From Branchiostoma floridae (taxonomy: Eukaryota; Chordata; Leptocardii; Amphioxiformes; Branchiostomatidae), in assembly GCF_000003815.2 (NCBI RefSeq), contig NC_049991.1, positions 21,895,062 through 21,959,061 of the forward strand: a DNA stretch of 64,000 bases, given 5' to 3'. The notes below the pieces were generated by a model that saw nothing but the letters and a program-made list of their open reading frames with translations, had not been told where the DNA came from and did no database searches. The position numbers and the translations under genes are program-made. Positions 15,601 through 44,700 of this stretch are shown piece by piece (the stretch's first letter is position 1; every line of letters starts with the position of its first letter).

Positions 15601-18600
15601 GTGATACAAGAAAAATAACAATAGTAACGCCCCTTGGAAATGTAGACCCGTCCGTTACCATGGTAACGGAAATAGGTACACGGCGTAATCTGCAGCCAAA
15701 AAATGCGGGGTGGCGCCCGGTTATAAACCCTTTTCAAATTTTTGCTCCAGTGCTATTCCTTCATTTTTTATGAATATTTTTCATTTTTATTTAAGGTCTC
15801 ATTGATGAGTTTCTTCTTCCCATAGACTTCTATGTTATAATTCGTGGTTTAAATGGGCGCGCTCATAATGAAGCTACGTGAAATTTCAGCAGATTTTTCA
15901 TTCTTTGTCGAGCACATTTACCCTATATCGTGGGAAAAAATTGCCAATGTAAACTATACGTAGAAACTTTTTTTATAGCAATTACAAACTACGATTAGTC
16001 AATCCCCACAAAAGGCACTTTTTCGCTGCTATTGTACAACCGCACCACTCAGAACCCACGACTGTGTACCTCCGATCTAGCGCGCGGCTGCCAAACTTTA
16101 CCTGCTTATTTCTTCAGTTAGAAACAAAACTTCACCAATCTAACTTTTGATATCAGTTCCGCTGGCTAAAAGGGAATTTCTCACCGCTAAAAACATGCGT
16201 CTATACAGCCGTTCAGTTTTTGGCTCGGATCTCTTTTAGGGTGTCCACTCGCGGAGTAATACATCAATGAGACCATAAACTTGGTCTTTGTAGCTTGTTT
16301 TTATGTAATATATATAATATAATGTTTTTCCAATTGAGCTTTTTTTTTGAACCCGTAAATTAAGTTCCTGTGGCCTTGATGAACATGCTACACGTTGAGT
16401 GGTAGTGAATGATTACATGTGAGTCAGGTTACAGTAACAGCCCTGGTCTTGTTAAAGTTGTTTTGTGCCAAGTAGAAACACAGTTCAGTGTGACACAAGC
16501 CAGCTGACAGGCCCAACATGTGAGCTTCTGGGTCAGTCTGCAGGAGGGGTGGAAACATGCAGAACTGCATGGAGTTACTGTTCTAATAAGGAGGGATGCA
16601 AACACACAACAACAATATCATGTGTTTTTGTATCAGGACTAGCAATTTTGGTTTTAATGGTCACCACGTGATATACCTGAAGGTTATTTCAAGGTGTGAC
16701 CTAAAGTCCAGGTAACATTATAATCTCTTCTCCCTATGTCAGAAACACCATGATTATGACCAGCTCAATTCCTCTCTTAGAGTCAGGACCAACTGACCCA
16801 ATAGGAAAAAGAAATGCAAGGGTTACAAAGATTGCTCATGAAAATTCCCTTCTAAGTCGGAATGGTATCATCCACTCACACTGGGAAGGTCCCCCACTGT
16901 CTTCGATAAGTCTGGCAATTTTACCATTTAACGTCCTATTAGAGGGACGGCCCTAGCCGAAGCTTGGTACTCATTTTTCACCTGAAGTGAAGTGAGGAAA
17001 GTCATGCAAATTGACTTTCCCAAGGGCACAAGATCTGGAGACACGGCAGGTTTTGAACTCGGGACCTCTTGGGCCCAGTCCCAAGCAATGCCAATTACGC
17101 CAAGTGATGTTAGAAAATCACTACTACATGTATGTTAGAAAAAGATTTATATCATCCTTGTCATGACATGATGTTTATGTACATGTATTCACCCCCCCAG
17201 CCCTGTGTGCAGCGTTTGAAACAGCAGACGTTCAGAAGCGAGGCTCCATCGATGTGCAGATCGTGCCAAAACTCGTCCAAGACGTCCTAGGTTCCAGTCT
17301 AGCGCCAAGTGAGAAGGACGCCATCCGACTCCGAGCAGAGAGCAAGGCGAAGAAAGGTGACTTTTCCTGTACATACTAACATAGTCTTCTAGATTTCTTA
17401 AAATGTTTTGTTATATGTATGCACCTTGTCTTGACTTGTTCTGTGTGTACAGGGTCCTTTGCAAACCGTCTGTAAAAGTTGAAGGGGCATCCCAGCTACT
17501 TTAAGGGGAATTCTGATCTTTGAGTTTGATTTTTTGATGTTCATGTTGTTAAATTATCCTTTAGGTTTGCTGATTTTCTGGAAGTTCTTTCAGAAATGTT
17601 GGTGTTGATGTTGTGTTGTTACGTACTAACCTGATGAAACTTATGTTTTTATGGATTATCCTGTAGGTGTTTTGTATTTTGCTGATTTTGTAGAAGTCAA
17701 TTGTCAGAAACGCTGATGTTGTGTTTGTTGTTTGTCTATATTTTCCCGTAGGTGTTTTGTATTTTGCTGATTTTGTGGAAGTCATGTCGGAGACGCTGCA
17801 GACGACCACCCAGTGGGGGAAGCTGACGACGACGCTCAGCGGATATGTCGGCATCGACACACTCCAGGAGCAGATGAGAAAAAAGGCGCTGAAACGAGGC
17901 TTCGAGTTCCACATCATGGTCGTCGGTACGTACGCTGTCTCTCTCTCTCTCTCCCGCTCTCTCTCTCTCCCTCTCTCTCTCTCTCTCCCTCTCTCTCCCC
18001 CTTTCTCTCTCCCTCCCTCTCTCTTTCTCTCTCTCTTTCTCTCTCTCTCAATCTCTCTCTCTCAATCTCTCTCTCTCTCTCTCCCCCCTCTCTCCCTCTC
18101 ACTCTCTGTCTTCCTCTCTTTGTTGACTTAATTTGAAGTACGAAGTATGTGAATATAAAAGACAATATGGATTCCAGAGTTGTTTATTAACTTACATAGC
18201 TCTCACAAGAACCTGGCACTAGTACAAAGAACTCATAATAAAAGTTGCTACCAGGGTTCTGCCAAACTCAAATTATTTTTCATTTCAACGAATTTTTCTG
18301 ATTTTAGCTAATTTTCACTTTTCCATGTGGTAACAAGCCCAGTTTGTGATGAAGATTCAGTTTTAGATTTAATGAAATACTTAATCATCCTCATGAGCTA
18401 CAAAATTCTATTGCAGGGACTAAGTGACTTGGCACGATTCTGTTCAACTTTATCCTTACTGGCCCGGGTGGCACCGTACCTAATGTATTACATCTTAGGA
18501 ATCCCTGCCCTTGGGGGATCCTAATGGTATGAAGTTCCTACTCTGGCATATTGACGGATTCTTGGCAGAACCACATTATGCTCATTGGCTCATGTTCGTA

Positions 18601-41700: not shown

Positions 41701-44700
41701 CTTCAGAGGCAGGCTGGCACGTTCTGTTTGGTTTTTAAGACTGAGATAAAGTTCAATATACTGTAATTCCTGTGTTTTTTAAGTGTATTCATGGTTTTTA
41801 CGGTGACGGCCATAACATAAACTTATCAATACCGACAACAAATAAATCGCCAACTTTTTTTATTCTTTATGCGCCCCTCATGCCACTGTGAACATTTAGT
41901 TCCAAGAACAAGACACAGACTTTCCCGTCGGACTCTGACTTTGATTATTTGGTGTATCCGAAACTGACAGCAGAAAATACATAATATAGTGCTGTATCTA
42001 TGAACTTGGCCCCTATTATACGCTGCCTTTGACCATCTGTTCCTCATTGTAACACATACTTAGTCTTCACACTGTTTACTTCCATACTAACATATCAAAG
42101 AAGTTCATTTTTTCAGTCTTTCTTTCCTTTGCTGGAAGATTCATTTAGCGAAAATTGTCTTTTCACTTCTGTACTAACAGATGAAGGAAGACCATTTTGT
42201 TTTTTTGCTTTGGTGAAAGGTCCAAAGACTGGGACAAAAAACTTACAGCTTTACCCAATTCTTGCTTGGATGAGATAAAAGCTTCTGATGCTGGTTAATA
42301 ACTAATTTTCACACCGTAAAGAGAGAAGCATGGGTAGGAATTTAAAAAGAAAATGAAATGAAATTTTGAATATCTATCTTACAGGAAAAGCACGGAAGGA
42401 CAAGAGAGGTAAATTCTTCTGGTAATATAGAGTAACAGAAACGGGAGTTTAAAAAGGTGCACAAAGTTGGTGTTTGTTAAACACATAAAAACTGATGCTT
42501 GTACTGGTGATACTCACTCAAAGTTTGGGGAGACACTGGGAATTCAGATGTTGTGTAGTTGAATGTAAAGGAGACATTTCAACTTGAACGAACATGCACA
42601 TTGCAATATTTTTGGGTGGGAGATGGGGGGCAAATCTAATATTTTTAAAATGGAAATTCTCAGTGTCTCTCCAATTGGTCCCGTTGTGGTCTATGCTGGG
42701 AGTCCTGATGCATGCTGGGAGTCCTGGTGCATGCTGGGACTCCTGGGGTATGCTGGGACTCCTGGTGTATGCTGGGATAGGAATAAGGTGCTTTTTTCAC
42801 CAGGATCTGTTTATAGTTGATGTAACCAGCACAGTCCACTCTTATTTAAGCCAAACCATTTTATTTGCCTGGTTCTCATTCCTAAGTGTTAAGCGAATAG
42901 TGAGACGAGTTAAACCATAAGCATGGGAACTGTGTGTACCGAGGTCCCGACTTTCCCTCTGACATGAACCAAGGGTTTCCGTGGTTACAACCTTCCACCC
43001 TGTCTCAGTAGCATTAACCACACATTCCACCTCCTCGGTTTCAGGTCACCCTCATATTAGTTTCCTCCTTTAAGTTTTTCCTCTTTTGTTTTCTTATTCT
43101 TTCCACCCTTTCTTTCTCCTTGGTTGCCGTGACGACGGTTAGGTCCGCGCCCTCCTCGCCTACTCACCACGCGCCTCCCCACTATCTCACCACCAGCGGA
43201 ACCTTCACGCCAGACTCCCTCTCGCGCGAGGGGTCCCCCATCCCGGAGGACGTCACCACGGCGCCCGTAACCACGGCGATGCCGGACCAGCTGAAGCAGG
43301 TGGTGATGACGCAGGACGGCTCGGTCATCGCGCAGGCGGTCTCCACGGCAACCGGCGCGGGGCCCGGCGTGATCCAGCCTACTTCTCATCCCACCACCGT
43401 CATCACGCAGGCGTCCCAGCATGCACTGCCCTCCGCCGCACAGCTGGTGTCCGCAGCGCAGTCCGTGCTGGCAGGTGAGCTCGTTTTGTTTGTTTTTGTC
43501 CAGGGGGTCCACTGGCAGGTGAGCTTGCCTGTTTGTTTGTTTGTCCATGAGGTCCACTCAGCAACTGAACCTGTCATTCATTCCTGTTGAGCATTTATTA
43601 TGTAAAGTTTAGCCTTCATTCTTGATTTTAAAAACTGATAGTTTCAGTTGGTATTATTTGTTGTCCCATGAAAATCATTTTGAAACCAAATTCTATCTGA
43701 TGTACAGGCGTTTTATCTGCGCATGTTGTTATATTGCTTATTCCAATTTGTAATTGTGACATCAATGAAGTCTGTTATGGAAGATAAATGAAAGATATGA
43801 AGTTTTGGATTATACCGGAACAGTTTCCCAGTAATGCTGACTCTCAGGCTGTGGCTTTGTACAGAATTTGTGTACAAGTGTGCAACCCAAAACATTGGGT
43901 CATTGGAAGATTGTTGACACATCATCAGAAGATCTTAGAGACCATTGAAACCATTCACAGCATCAACACCAGCCCAAACTGTCACCGATCTTTGTGCCCT
44001 TGGGAAAGGCACTTTACACGATAATGAAAATGAAGTGAAAATGAGTACCATTCACTGGACTCCAGGAAAAATAGTGACGTATCAGTCACTAATGGAGATC
44101 CTAATTAAAGCCAAACTAACCAAATGTACGTTGGCACATCTTAATATCTACCAATTGCCTGTAAGTTTGACCCCGCTAACTTCCCCAGCCCTAACGTAGG
44201 TTTGCACATCTTGACATCTACTAAATGTCTGTTTGACCTTGACCCCCCAGCCCAGGGCACGGCGACGGCGCTCCACCCCGCCTCCACGCTGACCACGGTT
44301 CCCGTGGCGATGCACCACATGCCCACGGTCATCAGCCAACCAAAATCCTACACTGCCACCTCCATATCCACCTCGGCCAATGGGAGCGCGGTTCAGGACA
44401 GGGCGGGCTCCACCAATGGCGTGCCAGATAATGAGGAAGGTACGGGCACAAGTCTTCTTACTGAAGTAACGTTTGGGTGTTCCCTATTTACTATATACAC
44501 ATTGACAATCATCAATAATCAGGGCTCAAATTACTTTTTTTTTTGCATACCTGCATTGGTGCAGGTGACATTAAAAACTACCTACTTACCTGATTCTGGA
44601 GGTGCCCTGCTCTTTCAACCATTACCCTTAGTTCCTGACCGCCCTGCTTATAAATATTAATGAGGTTACCCTTATACATGCGAGACAGCTTTTGAAAACA

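What the first reader, a model, noticed from the sequence alone, without database searches (positions are those of the whole stretch)
17554..44255. Two neighbouring genes with exon-intron junctions repeatedly turned into minisatellites
In the septin, junctions of exons 4, 5, 7, 8 and 9 (both sides), and in FoxK those of exons 2, 5, 6 and 7, have local tandem copies that contain part of the exon, usually the splice site, and part of the intron. Random placement of minisatellites should not favour junctions this often. I recall similar junction-spanning minisatellites at the amphioxus Adh locus. A splice-site-linked mechanism of repeat formation, or selection for decoy splice sites, are both possible.
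Basis: partly seen in the sequence, partly recalled or inferred. Interest (0 to 1): 0.8.

Follow-up and report, generated by a model that had tools for sequence, protein, structure and literature searches.

The report
Exon edges caught in minisatellites
In an amphioxus septin gene and its neighbour FoxK, short tandem repeats have copied several exon edges into the introns; this is a known amphioxus quirk, and a small blind sample of the same genome shows exon edges are hit no more often than other noncoding DNA.

Summary
In the septin, 5 of 17 tested exon edges have a strong extra copy in the adjacent intron, and a sixth has a short one. In FoxK it is 2 of 18, plus one short one. FoxK exon 5 is not confirmed. 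At 8 of these 9 junctions the best copy carries part of the exon, the splice dinucleotide and part of the intron.

The kind is already in print as amphioxus "mirages" (Adh3, globins, TnC, PGBD5). In the septin the arrays do favour junctions beyond uniform placement (5 of 6 against 1.1 expected, P=0.0009), but this locus was picked because it looked striking.

In blind loci of the same genome, 6 of 164 exon edges (3.7%) have a local copy, against 3.9% of noncoding positions in gene loci and 6.7% in random loci. One of 62 arrays straddles an edge (1.4 expected). So no general splice-linked mechanism is needed; a weak or locus-specific one is not excluded.

Decoy selection is unlikely: 12 of 13 scored decoys would truncate the septin.

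Best reading: ordinary tandem duplication in a minisatellite-rich region, tolerated because the exon-proximal splice site survives.

By-product: FoxK exon 3 may be a mirage-born cassette exon (no RNA evidence).

The parts
17644..17798 (+).
19935..20704 (+).
21349..21530 (+).
22115..22404 (+).
22593..22879 (+).
22910..22995 (+).
37242..37477 (+). Acceptor mirage of FoxK exon 2: copy 134 bp upstream (56 bp exon + 46 bp intron, AG kept; the alignment has an internal gap)
41564..41713 (+). Copy of the 3' end of FoxK exon 6 placed 114 bp downstream; the aligned part does not reach the splice site
43468..43558 (+). Short donor mirage of FoxK exon 7: 44-bp unit x 2, 7 bp exon + 36 bp intron
38494..38592 (+). 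FoxK exon 3, 99 bp, in frame; its start and acceptor tract resemble those of exon 4 (40048): candidate cassette exon born from an acceptor-edge duplication

Best explanation
These are amphioxus 'mirages': ordinary local tandem duplications (here mostly 44-105 bp units) whose unit happens to reach into an exon. Duplication copies exon edge, splice site and intron start together. The exon-proximal site keeps working and the extra copies fall in the intron, so they are tolerated, while duplications inside an exon are removed by selection. Arrays then grow and homogenise by slippage or unequal exchange. The cluster in this septin reflects a minisatellite-rich stretch plus chance and selective reporting, not a splice-site-driven process. 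SHOWN: the copies, their extents, the coding cost of decoy use, the blind rates, the local array density. INFERRED: neutrality, use of the exon-proximal site, the duplication mechanism.
For: Copies and extents. Exon part varies from 7 to 65 bp in the window, so the breakpoints are not at a fixed distance from the splice site.

Blind edges: 2 of 80 homology-placed junctions (57 kinesin, 23 ALDH) and 4 of 84 ab initio junctions in random loci, 6 of 164 together. Controls: 214 of 5483 noncoding positions in the gene loci (3.9%) and 1753 of 25981 in the random loci (6.7%). P for enrichment 0.62 and 0.97; a doubling over these controls gives P=0.025 and 2e-5, over the stricter repeat-border controls (3.7%, 5.0%) P=0.039 and 0.0019. 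These tests treat positions as independent, so they are approximate.

Blind arrays, unit 15 bp or more: 1 of 62 straddles, 1.44 expected, in 40 loci.

The window has 17 arrays of unit 25 bp or more in 64 kb (9 of them outside the two genes) against 29 in 262 kb of blind loci (P=0.005).

Inside the septin, edges (5 of 17) and intron positions (404 of 1409) have a local copy equally often, 29%.

A paralogous septin on another chromosome has no hit at 6 junctions and no TRF array in 2.7 kb.
Against: Within the septin, straddling exceeds uniform placement (5 of 6 arrays, P=0.0009) and its edge rate exceeds the blind rate (5 of 17 against 6 of 164, P=0.0013). Post hoc choice may explain this but does not prove it away. 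The blind sample is small; a preference below about two-fold, or one confined to some loci, would be missed. In the random loci a third of the predicted exons could be false (55 predicted, 17 in reversed sequence).
Confidence: 0.72

Rival explanations
1. Splice-site-linked formation: transcription, R-loops or the exon/intron sequence boundary promote duplications that start at exon edges.
For: Septin arrays 5 of 6 straddling, P=0.0009. Septin edges 5 of 17 against 6 of 164 blind, P=0.0013.
Against: Blind edges not enriched over noncoding positions; blind arrays 1 of 62 against 1.44 expected; exon part varies from 7 to 65 bp in the window; paralogous septin stretch free of arrays.
Confidence: 0.15
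2. Selection for decoy splice sites, for example to regulate septin output through unproductive splicing.
For: Splice dinucleotides are kept in the best copy at 8 of the 9 window junctions aligned; 12 of 13 scored decoys give a truncated frame, as a poison-site scheme would need.
Against: With copies about 90% identical, kept dinucleotides are expected without selection (inference). FoxK and unrelated genes show the same thing. PMC3087553 and PMC3902484 say mirages do not disturb splicing (passages).
Confidence: 0.05
3. Assembly artefact: collapsed or mis-joined haplotypes made false tandem copies.
For: PMC3087553 reports one mirage wrongly assembled in the older draft (supplement legend quoted); amphioxus haplotypes differ greatly (recalled).
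Against: The best copies differ from the true edge (87-97% identity in the window), units of the exon 2 array differ by substitutions and a 3-bp indel, and mirages were found independently in other genes.
Confidence: 0.06

Closest known systems
Amphioxus 'mirages' (minisatellite-like tandem duplications of exon-intron boundaries: Adh3, globins BflGb6/9, TnC, PGBD5)
   Same: Tandem units spanning an acceptor or donor with exon and intron parts; splice signals present in many copies; units of tens to about 160 bp (passages).
   Different: Two further genes, with six junctions in one septin; here compared with a noncoding background. No length variation between individuals tested.
Intron or exon gain by tandem genomic duplication (Rogers model as cited in PMC3087553; potato RdRp case, PMC4974935, abstract and outline seen)
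   Same: Duplication across an intron-exon boundary supplies ready-made splice signals; FoxK exon 3 could be such a product.
   Different: No new intron or transcript is shown here.

Membership tests
Amphioxus mirages | Tandem repeat unit spans an exon-intron boundary | tested here: met
   8 of 9 window junctions aligned; the FoxK exon 6 copy does not reach the boundary
Amphioxus mirages | Copies carry AG/GT splice signals in many but not all cases | tested here: met
   8 of 9 best copies in the window
Amphioxus mirages | Regular splicing is not disturbed | not testable with these tools
   no RNA data; only the coding cost of decoy use was computed
Amphioxus mirages | Copy number unstable between haplotypes or somatically | not testable with these tools
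   one assembled haplotype; no reads held
Exon or intron gain by tandem duplication (FoxK exon 3) | New exon homologous to the edge of a neighbouring exon, with its splice signal | tested here: met
   aligned across tract, AG and exon start, score 45; 3 of 20,000 codon shuffles reach the exon-only score of 37; next best FoxK exon pair scores 29
Exon or intron gain by tandem duplication (FoxK exon 3) | New exon present in mature RNA and absent from the ancestral gene | not testable with these tools
   no RNA data and no second amphioxus genome held

The most novel reading that the evidence does not exclude
At some loci, this septin among them, tandem duplication is drawn to exon edges (for example where a conserved exon meets a highly polymorphic intron and repair templates switch), and it sometimes yields new exons: FoxK exon 3 would be a finished product copied from the acceptor edge of exon 4.
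Probability: 0.13. Interest if true: 0.7.

Novelty: new member of a known kind. Interest (0 to 1): 0.36.

Why it matters
In the papers I saw, mirages are reported gene by gene and offered as a route to new introns. A measured rate (about 4% of sampled exon edges with a local copy, equal to or below background) turns a curiosity into an estimate: many exon edges in this genome should carry spare splice sites, without any special mechanism. It supplies the null against which a splice-linked mechanism or exon birth must be shown.

Tried and rejected
Letter-free counting of mirages from family tables was too insensitive. The septin (25 matches), myosin (142) and CCT (60) tables, read by eye, show no true tandem same-segment pair, although the window septin has many. 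The kinesin table (134) showed one, confirmed on fetching. A myosin candidate proved to be two different exons.

A first array test (septin 6 of 7, FoxK 3 of 7) included arrays found by looking at junctions, so I replaced it with TRF-only arrays (rechecked).

Dropped rows. One of the 20 random loci was left out of exon prediction because much of it reads N; it stayed in the control scan, where N stretches were skipped. Of 55 predicted exons 4 were dropped as repetitive, and low-complexity edges were left out (84 junctions kept). Junctions with a splice score of 3 or less were dropped (80 kept, from 8 kinesin and 13 of 14 ALDH loci). Five of those 80 fall below the complexity filter used for the controls; none of them is a hit. 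Control positions overlapping exons predicted at a score of 18 or more were left out. I had seen the table, with its visible triplet, before making the list; that region fell in the second batch, was fetched later (L051), and is not counted in the 164. Some homology-placed junctions may be off by a few bases.

Considered but not testable: subtelomeric enrichment (the window lies about 450 kb from the contig end).
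Full report
What was claimed.

Where it lies. The window is G000:C13:21895062-21959061 of a 513-Mb genome in 431 contigs, about 450 kb from the contig end (contig length).

Gene models. I found exons with recalled human septin and FOXK1 fragments and fixed boundaries by reading frame and GT/AG. The septin gives one open frame of 329 aa. Pfam calls it Septin (E=8.7e-113); the joined FoxK exons 2-10 carry a Forkhead domain (E=6.6e-38).

The copies. A 40-bp probe from each exon edge was aligned to the 400 bp of adjacent intron. 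In the window the scores fall into two groups: 19 or below, and 30 or above. Septin: 5 of 17 edges (exon 1 acceptor; donors of 2, 4, 5; exon 6 acceptor). FoxK: 2 of 18 (exon 2 acceptor, exon 6 donor). TRF adds two 44-bp duplications, at the septin exon 6 donor and the FoxK exon 7 donor. Full alignments show the exon part ranging from 7 to 65 bp in the window and the splice dinucleotide present in the best copy at 8 of 9 junctions. The FoxK exon 6 copy is exon-only. FoxK exon 5 has only an intronic repeat next to its donor.

Is it more than chance here? TRF arrays were re-placed at random in the gene, allowing them to reach into an exon by at most one unit. Five of six septin arrays straddle an edge, against 1.12 expected (P=0.0009); FoxK exons 2-10 have one of six against 0.30 (P=0.27). 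With a CA-rich row added, the septin has five of seven (P=0.0015). The septin is therefore unusual, but it was noticed because it is unusual, and such a P value will recur among tens of thousands of genes (gene number recalled). By another measure there is no excess even here: inside the septin, edges (5 of 17) and intron positions (404 of 1409) have a local copy equally often, since its introns are full of the same arrays.

Blind test, homology-placed edges. Kinesin and aldehyde dehydrogenase families were chosen without regard to repeats. Eight compact kinesin regions and 13 of 14 ALDH loci gave 57 + 23 = 80 usable junctions. Two carry a copy: a kinesin donor (L046, 30 of 35 bases) and an ALDH acceptor (L038, 33 of 35).

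Blind test, random loci. Twenty 10-kb stretches were taken at round-number positions on six contigs, chosen without looking. A simple exon finder predicted 55 exons at its cut-off in 19 of them; 17 were predicted in reversed sequence, so perhaps a third are false. After dropping repetitive exons and low-complexity edges, 4 of 84 junctions carry a copy, one of them exactly at the threshold.

Controls. Noncoding positions in the same loci were tested in the same way: 214 of 5483 (3.9%) around the family exons and 1753 of 25981 (6.7%) in the random loci. Counting only positions at the border of a repeat, as at an exon edge, gives 3.7% and 5.0%.

Result. Blind exon edges: 6 of 164, 3.7% (95% interval 1.4-7.8%). 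Tests for enrichment over the two controls give P=0.62 and 0.97. A two-fold preference is disfavoured at P=0.025 and 2e-5, or 0.039 and 0.0019 against the border controls. Positions are not independent, so these values are rough. By arrays, 1 of 62 blind arrays in 40 loci straddles an edge against 1.44 expected. A copy shared by a conserved exon and an intron also stays recognisable longer than one shared by two introns (inference), so equal counts argue, if anything, against a preference.

Why this locus. The window holds 17 arrays of unit 25 bp or more in 64 kb, against 29 in 262 kb of blind loci (P=0.005). A septin paralog on another chromosome has no TRF array in the 2.7 kb fetched and no copy at its 6 junctions there, some tested against less than 400 bp. 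So neither the septin junction sequence nor the family predicts mirages; the local array density does better.

Decoys. If the decoy sites were used, 12 of 13 scored cases would shorten the septin from 329 to 92-258 aa. One, in exon 5, would add 27 aa in frame. The exon 4 decoy was not scored by the script; read by eye it meets a TAA at once. The exon 1 decoy lies before the start codon. Decoy use is thus costly. The simplest view is that the exon-proximal site is used and the copies are inert. This is inference; no RNA was available.

What is known. Passages of PMC3087553 describe 'mirages' in globin genes and cite Adh3, retinol dehydrogenase and presenilin papers. A passage of PMC3902484 adds PGBD5 and troponin C. 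Both report undisturbed splicing. The Adh paper itself is not held. My searches (listings seen) found no genome-wide test; that says nothing about papers outside the library.

A possible product. FoxK exon 3 (99 bp) matches the acceptor tract, AG and exon start of exon 4 (38480-38520 against 40031-40074, score 45). Three of 20,000 codon shuffles reach the exon-only score of 37; the next best FoxK exon pair scores 29. Only the frame that joins exon 2 is open, and skipping exon 3 keeps the frame too. The pair was noticed by eye first. This fits the published idea that a mirage copy can become an exon (passage), but needs RNA and a second species.

A further independent mirage. The kinesin table showed one same-segment triplet; the fetched DNA (L051) has three copies 151 and 154 bp apart with AG and over 80 bp of exon. 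It was chosen because it was visible and is not in the blind counts.

Verdict. A real and well-formed example of a known amphioxus feature, with a local cluster in one septin. The general claim of junction preference fails in a small blind sample of the same genome.

Noticed in passing
window 38494-38592 and 40048-40198: FoxK exon 3 looks like a cassette exon derived from a copy of the acceptor edge of exon 4; in frame with or without it.
   Followed up: partly
window 32485-35634 (+): Open 1049-aa frame of a non-LTR retrotransposon (endonuclease and reverse transcriptase domains) inside FoxK intron 1.
   Followed up: partly
window 48785-52036: 22-bp unit repeated about 148 times, open in three minus-strand frames of over 1000 aa; probably a noncoding VNTR.
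   Followed up: no
window 12397-12833: 36-bp unit x 12 at 98% matches, open in several frames; looks recently expanded.
   Followed up: no
window 57973-58410 (+): An exon of a Ras-family GTPase (Pfam Ras; Rasd-like by eye).
   Followed up: partly
window 63005-63151 and 57892-57947: Arrays whose units contain donor-like G|GTAA or G|GTAGG sites; could be further mirages of unplaced exons.
   Followed up: no
window 40923-40930: FoxK exon 5 acceptor is a NAGNAG tandem acceptor (CCAGCAG), seen by eye.
   Followed up: no
G000 C11 about 15.783-15.790 Mb and 15.849-15.859 Mb: Two sets of septin exon matches with corresponding segments about 65 kb apart: tandem paralogs or an uncollapsed haplotype; not compared.
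   Followed up: no
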